From Paludibacter sp. (lineage in GTDB: Bacteria > Bacteroidota > Bacteroidia > Bacteroidales > Paludibacteraceae), in the NCBI GenBank assembly GCA_028710895.1, contig JAQTTH010000017.1, forward strand, positions 1 through 64,000: a stretch of 64,000 bases of DNA. Reading direction: 5' to 3'. Both the position numbers and the translations under genes were made by a program. This document shows, in pieces, positions 56,172-62,491 of the stretch. Position 1 is the first letter of the stretch. Each line of letters opens with the position of its first letter. Below the pieces are notes generated by a model, which saw only the letters and a list, made by a program, of their open reading frames with translations, was not told the origin of the DNA and did no database searches.

Positions 56172-57209
56172 ATGTACAAACTCGGAATACTAGGACTTGG
56201 TGAAGGTCGCAGCACCATGTCGGCAGCGCTGCAAAGCGACAAGTGGACGCTACACAAAATCTGCGATTTGAATGAAGACCTGTGTAAGAAACGCGCCAAG
56301 GAATTTGATTTCCATAACTATACAACCCGCTATCAGGATTTGCTCGAAGACCCTGAGATTGATGTTATCGGCATTTATACGCCCGATAAGTTTCACGCCC
56401 AGCATATCAAAATGGCTCTGGAAGCGGGCAAACATGTTGTTTGTACAAAGCCGCTTATCGACGACCTGAGCAAAGCGCAGGAATTGATTGACCTGAGCGC
56501 AGCCACCGGAAAGCGTGTTTTTGTGGGGCAAAGCAGCCGCTTTTTCGAACCCATGAAACGCCAGCGCGCCGATTACCTGGCCGGTGAAATTGGCGAACTG
56601 GTAACTGTGGAGGCCTATTATCATGCCGATCATCGCTGGTTTTTGGGCAAAGGCTGGTCGTTGGAGAATTCGTTTAAATGGCTGTATGGCGGACTGAGCC
56701 ATCCGGTGGATTTGGTGCGCTGGTATATGCCCGACATTGTGGAAGTGATGGGTTACGGCATGTTGAGCCCGAACGGTAGGGCAGGAGGGTTGCAAAATCA
56801 GGACACCATGCATTTTATTTTTAAAGCCGCCGACGGACGCATTGCCCGGGTGAGTGGTGTGTATTCGGGACCGGTACAACCAACCGTGCGCGACAGCGAG
56901 ATGAGTTGTATTTTGCGCGGCACCGAAGGCTGCAGTCAGGGCGATTACATGGATTTGCGCTATGCCATTACCACCAAAACCGGCGAAGAAAAACTCATCA
57001 CCTTCGACCATAAGTTGAAACATTTCTTCCGCTTCGAAGGAAAATCGCACCATGCGGGTGAGTACCAGAACTACTACGAATATTTTGCCGATTGCCTCAC
57101 TTCCGGCGAAACGGCATACCCCGATTTACGTGAAGGTATCAAAACGGTGGCGGTGATGCAGGCTATGGACGAATCGCTGCGGACAGGGGTGCCGGTGAGG
57201 GTGGGATGA
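56172..57209 (+). CDS. Gfo/Idh/MocA-family oxidoreductase
   Basis: NAD(P)-dependent oxidoreductase of 345 residues from MYKLGILGLGEGRS at 56172. It has the Rossmann N-terminus, YTPDKFHAQHIKMALEAGKH, the catalytic-type Lys in VCTKPLIDDL, and a second half with WLYGGLSHPVDLVRWY. The substrate is probably a sugar or cyclitol. The gene looks more GC-rich than its neighbours, especially the AT-rich operon that follows. Confidence 0.9.
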   Translation: MYKLGILGLGEGRSTMSAALQSDKWTLHKICDLNEDLCKKRAKEFDFHNYTTRYQDLLEDPEIDVIGIYTPDKFHAQHIKMALEAGKHVVCTKPLIDDLSKAQELIDLSAATGKRVFVGQSSRFFEPMKRQRADYLAGEIGELVTVEAYYHADHRWFLGKGWSLENSFKWLYGGLSHPVDLVRWYMPDIVEVMGYGMLSPNGRAGGLQNQDTMHFIFKAADGRIARVSGVYSGPVQPTVRDSEMSCILRGTEGCSQGDYMDLRYAITTKTGEEKLITFDHKLKHFFRFEGKSHHAGEYQNYYEYFADCLTSGETAYPDLREGIKTVAVMQAMDESLRTGVPVRVG

Positions 57210-57330: not shown

Positions 57331-57363
57331 AAAAAATAGCTGACCAATCATTTCAGCTATTTT
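57331..57363 (-). terminator. Terminator of the two-RT operon and candidate RNA
   Basis: On the minus strand AAAATAGCTGA, a 9-base loop, then TCAGCTATTTT running into further Ts: an 11-bp perfect stem. It lies 115 bases past the last coding stop, which leaves room for an RNA between them. Confidence 0.85.
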
Positions 57364-57478
57364 CCTTTTCACTAGAAATCCAGTTACGGAGATTGAGAAA
57401 AGCCATTGGCACGCTTGTGTGTGACAAGATAAATTGCTTAATCTTGTAAATATTTGATTGGTGCGTTACCCAATATTC
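57331..57478 (-). ncRNA. Candidate template RNA of the DRT3-like system
   Basis: About 148 non-coding bases downstream of the second RT gene, closed by a strong terminator. On the minus strand it has a hairpin CAAGAT/ATCTTG, then TCACACACAAG with the CACACACA tract at 57416-57423 in the small stem CTTG/CAAG, and later the terminator stem. As I recall it, DRT3 carries an RNA with an ACACAC template for poly(GT) synthesis. This region fits that in content and position, but no alignment was made and the 5' end is unknown. Confidence 0.6.
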
Positions 57479-58210
57479 TTAATATGCTAGTTCATTTGCA
57501 ATTTTAGCTTCTAATTCCTTTGCAAAATTAAAATTATTCCACTTAGTAAACCAATATTTCTGATTTTTTTTGAAATTAAATATGATATTTTGTTCTTTTA
57601 CACTAGTTACACCAAATATTATAAGTACTTCTCTCTTAAATTTAGCATCTAAGTAAGGACAAACAACGATATCAAACAGTAGTAATACATTTTCGGCTTT
57701 ACTACTTCTTTTATCAATCCTTTCCTCAGCTTTAAACAAGTCAATAATTTTTAGTTTAATCGCCTTTTTTATTGGCAAATAAGCTTTATCATTTTTTATG
57801 TAGAAAAGTAATACTGTAACTACAAAATAATTAATATCCGCTTGAAAAATCAATTTATTCTCATCTTTATCTAATTTTAAATTGAAGTATTGTTTTAACT
57901 GCTCTTCTGTCAATCTAAATTGCTCACCCAACTCTGCAAGGGCTATCAACAAATAAAGACTTTCGACTTGAATGTATTTATCTAATTTACGTCTTTCAAA
58001 AGTAAAAACAATCTCATCTGATATTTTTTTAAACACTAATTCTTTTGATTGTTCTGTAAATCTAGCTATTTTTTCGGTACTCCCTTTAAATTGTATTTTT
58101 TGTTTATAAGTAAGTAGAATCTTTGATAATATATGACAAAGTTTTACCGTAAAGGAAACTCTTGGATTGACCGAATAAATGAAAAATACAAAGTCTAGCA
58201 AATCCCACAT
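57479..58210 (-). CDS. C-terminal part of Drt3b (other side of the frameshift)
   Basis: This frame reads MWDLLDFVFFIYSVNPRVSF and onward for 243 residues, helical, ending FAKELEAKIANELAY. It is open upstream of the ATG at 58210 back to about 58363, giving RYETYVDGLEKIRHE and KPFTTEEIQKKI, which continue the reverse transcriptase of the gene before it. I therefore read it as the C-terminal domain of Drt3b and not an independent gene. Joined at the frameshift, the full protein is about 720 residues. AT-rich. Confidence 0.75.
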   Translation of the reverse strand: MWDLLDFVFFIYSVNPRVSFTVKLCHILSKILLTYKQKIQFKGSTEKIARFTEQSKELVFKKISDEIVFTFERRKLDKYIQVESLYLLIALAELGEQFRLTEEQLKQYFNLKLDKDENKLIFQADINYFVVTVLLFYIKNDKAYLPIKKAIKLKIIDLFKAEERIDKRSSKAENVLLLFDIVVCPYLDAKFKREVLIIFGVTSVKEQNIIFNFKKNQKYWFTKWNNFNFAKELEAKIANELAY

Positions 58211-58320
58211 ATATTTATTAAACTGATCTTCTTGCCTGATTTTTTTTTGTATTTCTTCAGTTGTAAAAGGCTTTATATCCGCTAAAAAAGAACTTTCATG
58301 TCTAATTTTTTCTAATCCAT

Positions 58321-59640
58321 CTACATAGGTTTCATATCGACTAATACTTTGTTTGACTTTTTTATATAAAGATATAAAGTAAAATTCATTACATCTTTAT
58401 ATTCAACATTTGATTCTTTAATTATAGTTTTAAATTTCGTAATCAGAGACTTCGAATTACAATTTATTTGAAAATCGCAAATTCTTTCTTTAGAATCCTT
58501 TTTTTCGATTTTCAAAAAGATCTCATTGTCAATTAAATCTGTAATTTTATCTTTAGCGATTGTCAGTTCTGTGATTAAAGGTTTTACATAATGTATTGAC
58601 TTCGACTCACTAATTGACATTTTATATGTTTTCAACAACAGCTCATATTCGGTTAATATATCCTCTTTTACTTTATCATCATTATAGAAAACAAAGTAAT
58701 CATCAACATAACGAAATATCTCATAATCTCGCTTAAATGTTAGTTTGTTTTCTTTACGAGTTTTAAGTCTTTGTTCAACTGTCTTATCAATTTTTTGTAA
58801 TATTATCTCAGCAAACACTCTTGAGAACTCCGGTCCAATAACAATTCCATTTGTTTCACCGTAGTTAGTATTCTGCATAAATTTATCAAATCGATTCCCA
58901 AATTCAGCTGCATTGGAACTACAATACTCTTTTGCATATTCTTTAGAATTTACTGCCCAACCTATTGAGTGCGTATATATACTGTCAAAGCACTTAGAGA
59001 TATCAAATTTAAAAAGTTTATCGTATTTCTTTTCAGCGCGATGGTATCTATAGTCTTCGTAAAACTTATAAATATGGGGATATTGGCTATATGTGAAAAA
59101 TGTTTTTAAGTTTTCATACTCTCTATCGGAGCTTTCAATAGCATCATCTTCATCTCCTAAATTCATTTTATGAAGATTATCATTCTGATATATAAATTTT
59201 GCAATTTTATCAGGCTTCCTAATTGAGAATGAACTTATGTTAGAATAGTATAAAATAAGCTCTTTATAAACATCATAAAACGCGACTAATTCTAATTGAC
59301 TTTTAGGGTGTGGTATAGCCAATTCCCTAAATCTATTCGCTTTATGTGCTATGTTAAAAACGAAAGGAACCCTTCTATGCATTTTGTCATCTATATTTAT
59401 CTTTTTCCCCATTAAAGGTTTGCTTGTGCCAAAGAGCAGTTTTAGTATTATTTCAAATGTATTGTCAGACAAATTGCAGGTTATACTTTGAGTATTACTC
59501 TTATCATTTACGAATTGAATATTAAATTCATTTACAAACTGATAAAAATGACGATTAGAAAACGTCAACGGAATTTCATATGGCAAAGTGTCAGACAATA
59601 ATGCTCTAGCCATAGTATATTTAATTTGTTTCTTTTTCAT
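58321..59640 (-). CDS. drt3b: Reverse transcriptase Drt3b (UG8-like), N-terminal part
   Basis: Second reverse transcriptase of the operon, 439 residues from the ATG at 59640 to a premature TAG. LLSDTLPYEIPLTFSN is near the N-terminus. RT motif A is KFDISKCFDSIY (Asp near 213), motif B region is NGIVIGPEFSRVFAEI, and motif C is FRYVDDYFVFY (about 309-319). The ATG overlaps the stop of the previous gene as ATGA, so translation is coupled. In DRT3 the second RT makes the complementary strand. The stop follows the slippery site by 34 bases. Confidence 0.85.
   Translation of the reverse strand: MKKKQIKYTMARALLSDTLPYEIPLTFSNRHFYQFVNEFNIQFVNDKSNTQSITCNLSDNTFEIILKLLFGTSKPLMGKKINIDDKMHRRVPFVFNIAHKANRFRELAIPHPKSQLELVAFYDVYKELILYYSNISSFSIRKPDKIAKFIYQNDNLHKMNLGDEDDAIESSDREYENLKTFFTYSQYPHIYKFYEDYRYHRAEKKYDKLFKFDISKCFDSIYTHSIGWAVNSKEYAKEYCSSNAAEFGNRFDKFMQNTNYGETNGIVIGPEFSRVFAEIILQKIDKTVEQRLKTRKENKLTFKRDYEIFRYVDDYFVFYNDDKVKEDILTEYELLLKTYKMSISESKSIHYVKPLITELTIAKDKITDLIDNEIFLKIEKKDSKERICDFQINCNSKSLITKFKTIIKESNVEYKDVMNFTLYLYIKKSNKVLVDMKPM
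58357..58363 (-). other. Slippery heptamer A AAA AAG at the Drt3b frame change
   Basis: In the reading frame of the first part the minus strand reads ATA AAA AAG TCA, so the heptamer A AAA AAG is in the phase needed for -1 slippage, the same heptamer as in dnaX. After a -1 shift the frame is AAA GTC AAA CAA and runs through the C-terminal part without a stop. No strong stimulatory hairpin is evident just after it. A simple one-base loss from a seven-A run would look the same. Confidence 0.7.
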
Positions 59641-61133
59641 TGTTTCCAAGCCGATGTGATTTTTTCGAAATTATTGAAAGCTCTCTTTGATTTTTCCGCA
59701 TCCGTCCTTAAATCAGGAATATCTTTGTGTCCCTTTTTACATTTTTTCTTTGGATTTGAATTTGCTTTCATATTAAAAAACAACTTATCATTAAATCCTC
59801 TTACAAAATCAAATCGTTTAAGCCTCGTTTTTAGTGGCTCATCAATAATTATTGCATCAATTCGACTAGCTAAGGTATTATTCAAATCATAAAGACATTG
59901 ACAGTCTTTATCAAGCAAACTATTTGAATAATAAATGCCGATTAAGCCCTTCTTTGGATGCTCTAGTTTGGTATTCTTTGTCAAATAGTTCAATCTGTGA
60001 ATAAGTAATTTATGTGCCTCATTATAGTTCCAAATTTTATCTTTTTTAAATTCGTTTAATGTAGCTTCAATTTTTCTCTTATAACTTTCTTTTCGATTAT
60101 CAGAAAGATTAATTTTGAATTCTTTAAGGGATTTACCTGCCACTGGTGTTTTAGCAACAATAAATTTATACCCTAAAAAGTTTATCGAATGTGTATAAGT
60201 CGTTTCAAAAAGATTACATTCAAATGATTTGTTATATAATGGATTTGGATCTTTTTTTAAAGCCATTCCATAATAATTTACAATCTCCTCAATCTTATTT
60301 AGATAATAGTCTAATGAATCCTTAGAACTAATAGGTTTAAACACAGCAAACATATCGTCAACATATCTGCAATAATATGCAATATCATCAATATCTTTAA
60401 TCTTCTTGTCTATCTCTTTCATATATAATTCAGCAAGAAATGCGCTCACTCCAGCACCTCTTGGAATACCTTTTCGATCACATTTCTTTAATTTATTTTG
60501 CTTGGTAAAGGTGTTATATTGATATATTATATTTTCAATTAGCAATTTTGATTTTGGAGATAATAACTGATTATCATTTATCAAGCTTAACAATTTTTCT
60601 TGAGGTACATTTTCATAAAAACCTTCTATATCTGTTCTTACAACATACTTTGGCAGATTATCTTGTAAAATCGATTTTATCTGTTCGACTATAAGGTAAC
60701 GGTTGGATTGTTTTACATCAAAAGTTCTGTTAATATTGCGTTGGAGTTGCTTCATTGCAAAAAATAAAGGTGCATTATTTTTCTGAATTTTATATTTCAC
60801 CTTTTCATATGGATCAGTCTCATTAATTTTAAATGGTGTTAGTATTATTGAGAAAGTATTGTTATTGACATTACTACTATATTCAATAAGATTGGCATAT
60901 AAAGTAGCCTCTTTTTGCTCAATCAATTTATCCCTATCATCCAATAGTTCTTTATAGCCATCATCGGTTACTTTCCTAATTGGATATGCTTTTATCTCAG
61001 ACCTTATATTTATTAGCTTCTGGGCCAATTCATAGTACTCAATAGAAAAGAACTTTTTATCCAAAGCACCTTTGCGGTTCTCTTCTTCAAAAATTATTTT
61101 GAAATTATCTACAGAAAAAGATTGGTCTAACAT
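59637..61133 (-). CDS. drt3a: Reverse transcriptase Drt3a (UG3-like)
   Basis: First reverse transcriptase of the operon, 498 residues from the ATG at 61133 (MLDQSFSVDNFKIIFEEEN); the frame is open further upstream to 61277 but that stretch crosses the promoter. RT motif A is VVRTDIEGFYENV (Asp near 168), motif B is GIPRGAGVSAFLAELYM (about 222-238), motif C is CRYVDDMFAVF (about 255-265), and NFLGYKFIV follows. The C-terminus is basic and ends near the next ATG. In DRT3 this RT uses the system RNA as template. AT-rich, unlike the flanks. Confidence 0.88.
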   Translation of the reverse strand: MLDQSFSVDNFKIIFEEENRKGALDKKFFSIEYYELAQKLINIRSEIKAYPIRKVTDDGYKELLDDRDKLIEQKEATLYANLIEYSSNVNNNTFSIILTPFKINETDPYEKVKYKIQKNNAPLFFAMKQLQRNINRTFDVKQSNRYLIVEQIKSILQDNLPKYVVRTDIEGFYENVPQEKLLSLINDNQLLSPKSKLLIENIIYQYNTFTKQNKLKKCDRKGIPRGAGVSAFLAELYMKEIDKKIKDIDDIAYYCRYVDDMFAVFKPISSKDSLDYYLNKIEEIVNYYGMALKKDPNPLYNKSFECNLFETTYTHSINFLGYKFIVAKTPVAGKSLKEFKINLSDNRKESYKRKIEATLNEFKKDKIWNYNEAHKLLIHRLNYLTKNTKLEHPKKGLIGIYYSNSLLDKDCQCLYDLNNTLASRIDAIIIDEPLKTRLKRFDFVRGFNDKLFFNMKANSNPKKKCKKGHKDIPDLRTDAEKSKRAFNNFEKITSAWKQ

Positions 61134-61169: not shown

Positions 61170-61263
61170 ACCCTTTATTTTCACACTTAACATACCTAAC
61201 CCCACTAATTTCAACCAATTTACCCCTCTCAAGACTTTTCTCACTCCAACATCGACCTTCAGA

Positions 61264-61410
61264 ACGTCTTCCGACACCTTTTTTACGTCTTCCGACTCGT
61301 AAATTACCCCATGCGAGCACTTAATTACATATTGAATGACCTAATTTACCTGTCCAGAGACCTTATTTACCCTATCCGAGACCCTTTTTATGTCTCTGTC
61401 GAGCTTCGGA
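61264..61410. repeat. Seven degenerate 21-nt tandem units
   Basis: Units start at 61264, 61285, 61306, 61327, 61348, 61369 and 61390, an exact 21-base period. The consensus is roughly AC, four variable bases, TCCGAGAC, CTTATTT. The period is divisible by three but the plus-strand frame has stops (TAA, TGA), so it is not an open coding repeat. The TCCGA core recalls the repeats at 37568-37720. Confidence 0.78.
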
Positions 61411-61487: not shown

Positions 61488-61973
61488 TTATTTTGCTGCG
61501 GCAGAATCTGCAGAATCTGTACTGCGGCTTTTACTTGGGAATCGTTTTTTCAATTCTTCGTAAATTGCTTTTGCACCCGGAATATTCATTCCTGCAGCTT
61601 GTTGCACACTGCTGTAATAATATAAGGCAGCATAATATGCTTCGCTTCCGGCTACCATCATGGTATCGTCAATAGCATTAAGCAATTGAGTGGCCAAAGA
61701 TGCAGAACCAATCAGGTTTTTAGAATCTGTAATATCAATCTCAAAATCAGAAGCTGTAAGAAATGCCGGAATAAATTCAGGATTTGTTTTGGTGTTTTCA
61801 AATGCTTTGTCAACAAAGCTACTTGATTTATCACCCAACTTCAACATATTCTTCCGGTCTTCCGGAGTCAGCGTTAAAGTATAAGGTTTCAACAACCCAA
61901 TTGCTTCCGCAATTTTCGCATTCACTTGTGTGAGTACTTCCACAGGAATACTTTGATTATGTATGTTATTCAT
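61488..61973 (-). CDS. Hypothetical helical protein
   Basis: A 161-residue protein from the ATG at 61973 (MNNIHNQSIPVEVLTQVNAK). It is mostly helical, with SEAYYAALYYYSSVQQAAG in the second half, and ends in a Ser/Ala/Lys-rich tail (SRSTDSADSAAAK). I do not recognise the family. The reading can be extended to 62249 but that part is translation of a repeat-like element and is not accepted. Confidence 0.65.
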   Translation of the reverse strand: MNNIHNQSIPVEVLTQVNAKIAEAIGLLKPYTLTLTPEDRKNMLKLGDKSSSFVDKAFENTKTNPEFIPAFLTASDFEIDITDSKNLIGSASLATQLLNAIDDTMMVAGSEAYYAALYYYSSVQQAAGMNIPGAKAIYEELKKRFPSKSRSTDSADSAAAK

Positions 61974-62491
61974 TTTTATTTTTTGTAATTTTGTAAAACT
62001 AAGAACAGATAACGGACTTTCACTTTGTCCGCTATTTTTCAGACTCAGATTAAATTGTCCCCGTATCCTGCCGTCTGAAAGAGGTGTGTGCAGGGCGGGG
62101 TAAAGTCTCCAAGATGATGGGATGTGTGTAGCTTCTCCCGTCGTAGGGAGAGCAGGGTGAAAGTATGTAGGAGGCCGAAACGGGAATTCCCCGGGGTTGT
62201 AAACAATTAAACAGCTGCATACAAAAGCAATACGTACTGAATTAAACAAGTTAATCTTGAAAGGTCAGCCACAAAATTAATAAATAGATTTTGAAACAAG
62301 CCCGTTAAAAACCATGTTTTATAACATGTATTATATTAAAACGGCTTATTTTTGCTGCTTGTTTCGTTCAGTTATAGTACTTAATACCATAAACATGGTA
62401 GTAAAAATGCCCTATCAATGCGATTGCGGGATATTGAAATACCCCTTATCTTTGCATTATAAAATTACAAACTCATTTAAAACATATTGTT
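61974..62491. other. Gap with repeat element upstream of cysK
   Basis: The stretch 62058-62197 is GC-richer and resembles an interspersed element with a hairpin TCTCCC/GGGAGA at 62134-62151. The cysK promoter lies at 62424-62454. No gene or riboswitch was recognised in the rest. Confidence 0.5.
62424..62454 (+). promoter_or_regulatory. Promoter of cysK
   Basis: TTG at 62424, 20 bases, then TATCTTTG at 62447-62454, 38 bases before the ATG: good Bacteroidota -33/-7 spacing. Confidence 0.65.

What the first reader, a model, noticed from the sequence alone, without database searches (positions are those of the whole stretch)
57331..57478. Candidate DRT3 RNA with CACACACA downstream of the RT genes
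About 115 non-coding bases plus a perfect terminator follow the last coding stop. The minus strand has CACACACA between short stems. As I recall, DRT3 uses a conserved ACACAC template in its RNA to make poly(GT). The tract occurs in the one place where an operon-encoded RNA would fit.
Basis: partly seen in the sequence, partly recalled or inferred. Interest (0 to 1): 0.75.

Follow-up and report, generated by a model that had tools for sequence, protein, structure and literature searches.

The report
DRT3 template RNA with terminator pseudoknot
Behind a pair of bacterial antiviral reverse-transcriptase genes lies the small non-coding RNA that the first enzyme probably copies into TG-repeat DNA; related genomes confirm it and show an apparently undescribed fold in which the RNA's 3' terminator loop pairs back beside the template, although the second enzyme's gene is frameshifted in this genome.

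Summary
The finding holds. On the minus strand, directly after the drt3b stop (57481-57479), lies a ~144-nt non-coding segment (57478-57335) with CACACACA at 57423-57416, ending in a 9-bp hairpin and T-run. The upstream genes pass NCBIfam's Drt3a and Drt3b cut-offs. In 77 of 79 related loci ACACAC lies 29-131 nt after drt3b (2.7% of random stretches). A covariance model built without the window or its close relative picks this segment as the best match in 64 kb, on the right strand (26.3 bits, E 2e-4; next 15.2 bits). Between the window and a Paludibacter relative the RNA differs at 3 of 115 bases, against 31% of neighbouring third codon positions.

(1) The RNA has a covarying pseudoknot: a strand 5' of the template pairs with the loop of the terminator hairpin (55 loci, 0 of 10,000 permutations; 6 of 6 pairs with double changes in 34 loci). 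E. coli-type DRT3 RNAs do not match this model, and I found no such pseudoknot in readable papers. (2) drt3b is split by a -1 frameshift at an A_AAA_AAG site; nearly all relatives, including the 94%-identical one, are intact, so the system may be impaired here. Transcription and function are untested.

The parts
59637..61133 (-). drt3a (UG3 reverse transcriptase, 498 aa, YVDD intact); its stop overlaps the drt3b start (ATGA)
   Evidence: NCBIfam NF041747 Drt3a 312.7 bits (cut-off 200); PADLOC Drt3a E 3.7e-92; PDB 9z6y_A Drt3a E 4e-15
58321..59640 (-). drt3b, first part (RT-like domain), ends at a premature TAG after the frame break
   Evidence: NCBIfam NF041748 Drt3b 511.3 bits (cut-off 350), positions 1-404 of 647; PDB 26cz and 9z6y Drt3b
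58357..58363 (-). A_AAA_AAG in frame where the two reading frames cross; possible -1 slip site, or a by-product of a 1-nt deletion
   Evidence: position and frame; intact frame in L032; no stimulatory structure downstream
57479..58366 (-). drt3b, second part in the -1 frame (alphaRep domain and C-terminal tail, ends ...EAKIANELAY, the last Tyr matching the Y666 primer position of EcoDRT3b)
   Evidence: NF041748 positions 406-644 of 647, E 1.1e-51; substitutions against L032 by codon position 27/15/91
57331..57478 (-). DRT3 ncRNA (about 144 nt to 57335 plus T-run)
   Evidence: R1 covariance hit 57472-57330, 26.3 bits, best in window; 3 of 115 differences to L032
57463..57470 (-). stem A, 5' strand GGUA(A)CGC
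   Evidence: pairs with 57414-57408; cross-locus permutation 0/10000; helix 1
57455..57462 (-). pseudoknot 5' strand ACCAAUCA (7-bp core CCAAUCA 57461-57455)
   Evidence: complementary to 57350-57343; covariation
57424..57447 (-). hairpin B (ACAAGAU/AUCUUGU), abutting the template on its 5' side; likely 5' template boundary
   Evidence: fold; helix 3 (74% of cells paired); absent in some relatives
57416..57423 (-). template CACACACA
   Evidence: 77 of 79 related loci have ACACAC here; the most frequent form is the same 8-mer (41 loci)
57408..57414 (-). stem A, 3' strand GCGUGCC
57365..57402 (-). hairpin C (CUUUUC/GAAAAG ends), between template domain and terminator
   Evidence: complementary ends seen in the sequence and identical in L032; not tested by covariation
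57335..57361 (-). terminator hairpin D (AAUAGCUGA/UCAGCUAUU); its loop holds the pseudoknot 3' strand UGAUUGG (57350-57344)
   Evidence: helices 4 and 2; the stem changes but still pairs in L032 while the loop strand is identical

Best explanation
This is the non-coding RNA of a DRT3 anti-phage system in a Paludibacter-like Bacteroidales genome. Drt3a binds the RNA and copies CACACACA over and over into poly(dTdG); Drt3b makes the complementary poly(dCdA) without a nucleic-acid template, giving repeat dsDNA that acts in abortive defence. Hairpin B, abutting the 5' end of the template, would stop Drt3a from copying further, like the stem-loop upstream of the DRT10 template or a telomerase template boundary element. 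Stem A closes the template loop on its 3' side. The pseudoknot joins the template loop to the loop of the 3' terminator hairpin, so the template domain can fold fully only on an RNA that has reached its 3' end. Shown here: gene identity, place and conservation of the template, stems and pseudoknot by covariation. Taken from published work on EcoDRT3: the chemistry. Inferred: boundary role of hairpin B, role of the pseudoknot, transcription here. In this genome the -1 frameshift in drt3b means that full-length Drt3b is made only by slippage at A_AAA_AAG, or not at all.
For: Drt3a and Drt3b pass NCBIfam equivalog cut-offs. Residues aligned with EcoDRT3b E22, R71, R241, YVDD and the terminal Tyr are kept, across both frames. 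ACACAC 29-131 nt after drt3b in 77 of 79 loci against 2.7% background. An independent covariance model hits the segment best in the window and hits most other window-type loci. Structure with pseudoknot: 83.3% of cells paired against 32-46% when slid, 21 of 23 pairs with double changes. Cross-locus permutations: pseudoknot 788 against 610 +/- 16, stem A 776 against 634 +/- 16, 0 of 10,000 each. ncRNA conserved more than third codon positions, p 5e-12. DRT3 mechanism: PMC13174585; template boundary in DRT10: PMC12632851.
Against: drt3b is not one open frame in this genome, so the system may be dead or weakened. The covariance score of the window (26.3 bits) is modest; in the whole genome the model gives no hit at E 0.001. 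The window's own pseudoknot alone is reached by 146 of 5000 shuffles; its support is comparative. A nested 5-bp hairpin (AUUGG/CCAAU) competes with the pseudoknot strand. Hairpin B is missing in some relatives. No transcript data.
Confidence: 0.93

Rival explanations
1. The CACACACA is a chance repeat in an ordinary 3' UTR with a terminator; the DRT3 system here needs no RNA at this place.
For: The 8-mer is expected 1.4 times in the window; the single-sequence fold is only z -1.96.
Against: Position and structure are conserved in 77 of 79 loci across Bacteroidota and Proteobacteria, with compensatory changes; the blind covariance model finds it.
Confidence: 0.02
2. The locus is a decaying remnant: drt3b is inactivated by a recent 1-nt deletion, and the ncRNA is still intact only because too little time has passed. 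(Compatible with the best explanation of what the RNA is.)
For: Only this genome and three of about 105 other loci are interrupted; the 94%-identical relative is intact. The -1 part still shows purifying selection, as expected of a recent break. No stimulatory structure follows the slip site, and in-frame slippery heptamers occur about twice per 440 codons, so one at the crossing may be chance.
Against: The frames cross exactly at a canonical A_AAA_AAG that could rejoin them; all else (drt3a, active sites, primer Tyr, ncRNA) is intact.
Confidence: 0.7
3. drt3b is expressed by -1 slippage at A_AAA_AAG (translational or transcriptional), giving a truncated RT-like protein and a little full-length Drt3b.
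For: In-frame A_AAA_AAG at 58363-58357 within the roughly 75-nt overlap of the two open frames; the joined product would align with the intact relative through the crossing; selection on the -1 part is still visible.
Against: Not conserved in any relative; no stimulatory structure; the relative lacks the heptamer.
Confidence: 0.2

Closest known systems
DRT3 of Escherichia coli (EcoDRT3; PMC13174585; PDB 26cz, 9z6y/9z6z)
   Same: Order drt3a-drt3b-ncRNA; ACACAC template; YVDD in both RTs; E22, R71, R241 and terminal Tyr of Drt3b conserved.
   Different: In the E. coli-type loci examined the template lies 119-201 nt after drt3b in most, against 29-87 nt in nearly all window-type loci; the covariance model of the window type hits none of them; the hairpin after the template in E. 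coli LR-45 has a 4-nt loop (TATG), too short for the pseudoknot. drt3b is split in the window.
DRT10 ncRNA (PMC12632851)
   Same: Short repeat template with a stem-loop directly upstream that sets the 5' boundary.
   Different: DRT10 has one RT with a SLATT partner and another template sequence; homology of the RNAs was not tested.
Telomerase RNA
   Same: Short repeat template and a 5' boundary element formed by a stem-loop or pseudoknot (as summarised in PMC12632851).
   Different: Analogy of layout only; no homology claimed.

Membership tests
DRT3 anti-phage system | Drt3a (UG3) reverse transcriptase | tested here: met
   NF041747 312.7 bits, cut-off 200
DRT3 anti-phage system | Drt3b (UG8) reverse transcriptase with alphaRep and C-terminal Tyr | tested here: met
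   NF041748 511.3 bits, cut-off 350, for the first part; second part E 1.1e-51, positions 406-644 of 647; terminal Tyr present
DRT3 anti-phage system | Drt3b encoded as one open frame | tested here: not met
   -1 frameshift near 58363-58357; the relative L032/G746 is intact. The family is assigned from sequence; activity of this copy is not claimed.
DRT3 anti-phage system | Drt3b gate residues E22 and R241, plus R71 and YVDD | tested here: met
   alignment to the 26cz chain (offset 108) puts window LPYE, GPEFSR, fRELAI and YVDD at these positions
DRT3 ncRNA | located directly downstream of drt3b | tested here: met
   57478-57335 right after the stop 57481-57479
DRT3 ncRNA | conserved 5'-ACACAC-3' in a loop next to a stem | tested here: met
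DRT3 ncRNA | match to the published E. coli-type covariance model | not testable with these tools
   the model is not held and Rfam 15 gives no such family here; my window-type model does not hit E. coli-type loci
DRT3 ncRNA | transcribed and bound by Drt3a | not testable with these tools
   needs RNA-seq or RIP-seq
DRT3 anti-phage system | TG/CA repeat DNA synthesis and phage defence | not testable with these tools
   needs experiment

The most novel reading that the evidence does not exclude
Most DRT3 systems outside the E. coli type carry a compact ncRNA of another architecture, in which the transcription terminator is itself part of the functional fold: its loop forms a conserved pseudoknot with the template loop, so that assembly of the template RNA depends on correct 3'-end formation, in a telomerase-RNA-like layout (pseudoknot, template, 5' boundary hairpin).
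Probability: 0.6. Interest if true: 0.6.

Novelty: new variant of a known kind. Interest (0 to 1): 0.5.

Why it matters
DRT3 makes repeat DNA from an RNA template and a protein template. The RNA has been characterised only for E. coli-type systems in the papers I could read. A covarying pseudoknot between template loop and terminator loop in a large set of other DRT3 loci gives a concrete model for template placement and repeat addition by Drt3a, a covariance model for finding more of these RNAs, and a parallel to telomerase RNA that compensatory mutants can test.

Tried and rejected
Rfam search: no family reaches its cut-off. A mixed alignment with the window (A3) misaligned the 3' half and was not used for counts. 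My first terminator finder demanded a T-run and missed many loci; a second parser without that demand was used for the permutation test, and it still picks a wrong hairpin in a few loci (e.g. L039, L044, L084, L095, L098, L100). A programmed frameshift in drt3b: no stimulatory structure, not conserved. A hairpin abutting the template as a universal feature: only weakly above control, so I call hairpin B common, not universal. Other copies of the RNA in the genome: none at E 0.001, which is uninformative because the window's own copy does not reach that threshold in a whole genome either.

Full report
Observation. On the minus strand the drt3b stop is TAA at 57481-57479. The sequence from 57478 is non-coding for 117 nt and then forms a 9-bp hairpin, 57361-57335, with a T-run to 57331. 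CACACACA lies at 57423-57416. By itself the tract is unremarkable in 64 kb (1.43 expected), but in 144 nt of one strand only about 0.002 are expected.

The genes. The 498-aa protein at 61133-59637 is Drt3a, and the roughly 440-aa protein ending at 58321 is Drt3b, by NCBIfam equivalog models (312.7 bits over a cut-off of 200; 511.3 over 350) and PADLOC. Drt3b stops about 404 positions into a 647-position model; the rest (positions 406-644) is in the -1 frame, 58366-57479. The frames cross at A_AAA_AAG, 58363-58357. The residues that PMC13174585 reports as gates and primer in EcoDRT3b (E22, R71, R241, YVDD, Y666) align to kept residues in the two parts.

Relatives. A scan of genome contigs gave 80 loci and viral contigs 25. 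The closest, L032, a Paludibacter MAG (G746, in the window's genus, gives the same 94% match and 729-aa frame), is 94% identical in the RT part of Drt3b and has one open frame. Of 79 window-type loci, 77 have ACACAC 29-131 nt after the drt3b stop; random 140-nt stretches of the same loci have it in 2.7%. The two exceptions, Gilliamella L097 and Schmidhempelia L099, have the shorter CACACA. The commonest form is exactly the window's CACACACA (41 loci).

Conservation. Against L032 the first 115 nt of the RNA differ at 3 positions, against 91 of 292 third positions in the adjoining part of drt3b (p 5e-12). The terminator stem differs (AATAGCTGA/TCAGCTATT against AATAGTCGA/TCGGCTATT) yet still pairs, while the pseudoknot loop strand TGATTGG is identical.

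Structure. A MAFFT alignment of 34 loci without the window and L032 (A2) supports, by pair counting, stem A around the template loop, hairpin B directly 5' of the template, the terminator hairpin D, and a pseudoknot from the strand just inside stem A to the loop of D. Altogether 83.3% of cells pair, against 32.4-45.5% when partners are slid by 1-3 columns; the pseudoknot helix pairs in 86.9% of cells and all six of its pairs show changes on both sides. I named this structure after looking at the sequences, so the slid control alone would flatter it. A separate test on 55 less similar loci, with the terminator loop chosen without regard to complementarity, gave a summed best-pairing score of 788 against 610 +/- 16 when loops were dealt among loci (0 of 10,000); the same for stem A gave 776 against 634 +/- 16 (0 of 10,000). 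In the window the strands are ACCAATCA (57462-57455) and TGATTGGT (57350-57343), the outermost pair competing with the terminator stem.

Blind test. A covariance model built from A2 with the nested stems only (R1) was run over the window: best hit 57472-57330 minus, 26.3 bits, E 2e-4; next best 15.2 bits, E 0.09. It also hits most other window-type loci not used in it, but none of the E. coli-type loci L122-L137 or L143. In most of those the template lies 119-201 nt after drt3b, and in E. coli LR-45 the hairpin after the template has a 4-nt loop, so the window-type RNA is a different architecture. PMC13174585 mentions no pseudoknot or terminator, and the passages I read of PMC13314766 do not either. 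The primary structure paper by Deng et al. (2026) was not found in the library, so earlier description cannot be excluded.

Mechanism. EcoDRT3 work shows that Drt3a copies ACACAC into poly(dTdG), that Drt3b makes poly(dCdA) guided by its own side chains, and that the two give dsDNA linked to abortive defence. By position, hairpin B at the 5' edge of the template would be the stop for Drt3a, as SL5 is in DRT10. The pseudoknot ties the template loop to the finished 3' end. Both roles are inferences.

Frameshift. Since the split from L032 the -1 part has changed mostly at third positions (27/15/91 by codon position; 20/10/109 in the first part), so it was under selection for most of that time. 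The break is therefore recent, or some full-length protein is still made by slippage. There is no stimulatory structure, and slippery heptamers are common enough for chance. I favour a recent inactivating deletion (0.7) over functional slippage (0.2). Three other drt3b genes (L085, L133, L137) are also interrupted between the RT-like and alphaRep regions, two of them at A-runs; the numbers are too small to interpret.

Noticed in passing
58321-58366: drt3b is split by a -1 frameshift at A_AAA_AAG; the close relative L032 is intact. The -1 part shows third-position-biased divergence.
   Followed up: partly
L085 about 3149; L133 about 6038; L137 about 6296: Three other drt3b genes are interrupted in the same interdomain stretch (two at A6-A7 runs, one by TAG); L133 and L137 keep ACACAC downstream of the true gene end, and the translated frames of L085 suggest it does too.
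   Followed up: partly
L097, L099: Gilliamella and Schmidhempelia DRT3 loci have only CACACA in place of the usual ACACAC-containing run: the shortest templates seen.
   Followed up: no
61488-62003 (minus strand): An unassigned gene (MNNIHNQSIPVEVLTQ...) precedes drt3a here and in L032, whose downstream neighbours differ; two further copies (55% and 29% identity) lie elsewhere in the genome.
   Followed up: partly
61255-61390: Degenerate 21-bp repeats (about two copies each) between that gene and drt3a.
   Followed up: no
57475-57457 (minus strand): A nested hairpin AUUGG/CCAAU competes with the pseudoknot strand in the window and L032; possibly a switch, possibly chance.
   Followed up: no
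57335-57361: The terminator hairpin lies between convergent genes (GFO/IDH/MocA oxidoreductase on the plus strand ends at 57209) and could stop transcription from both sides.
   Followed up: no
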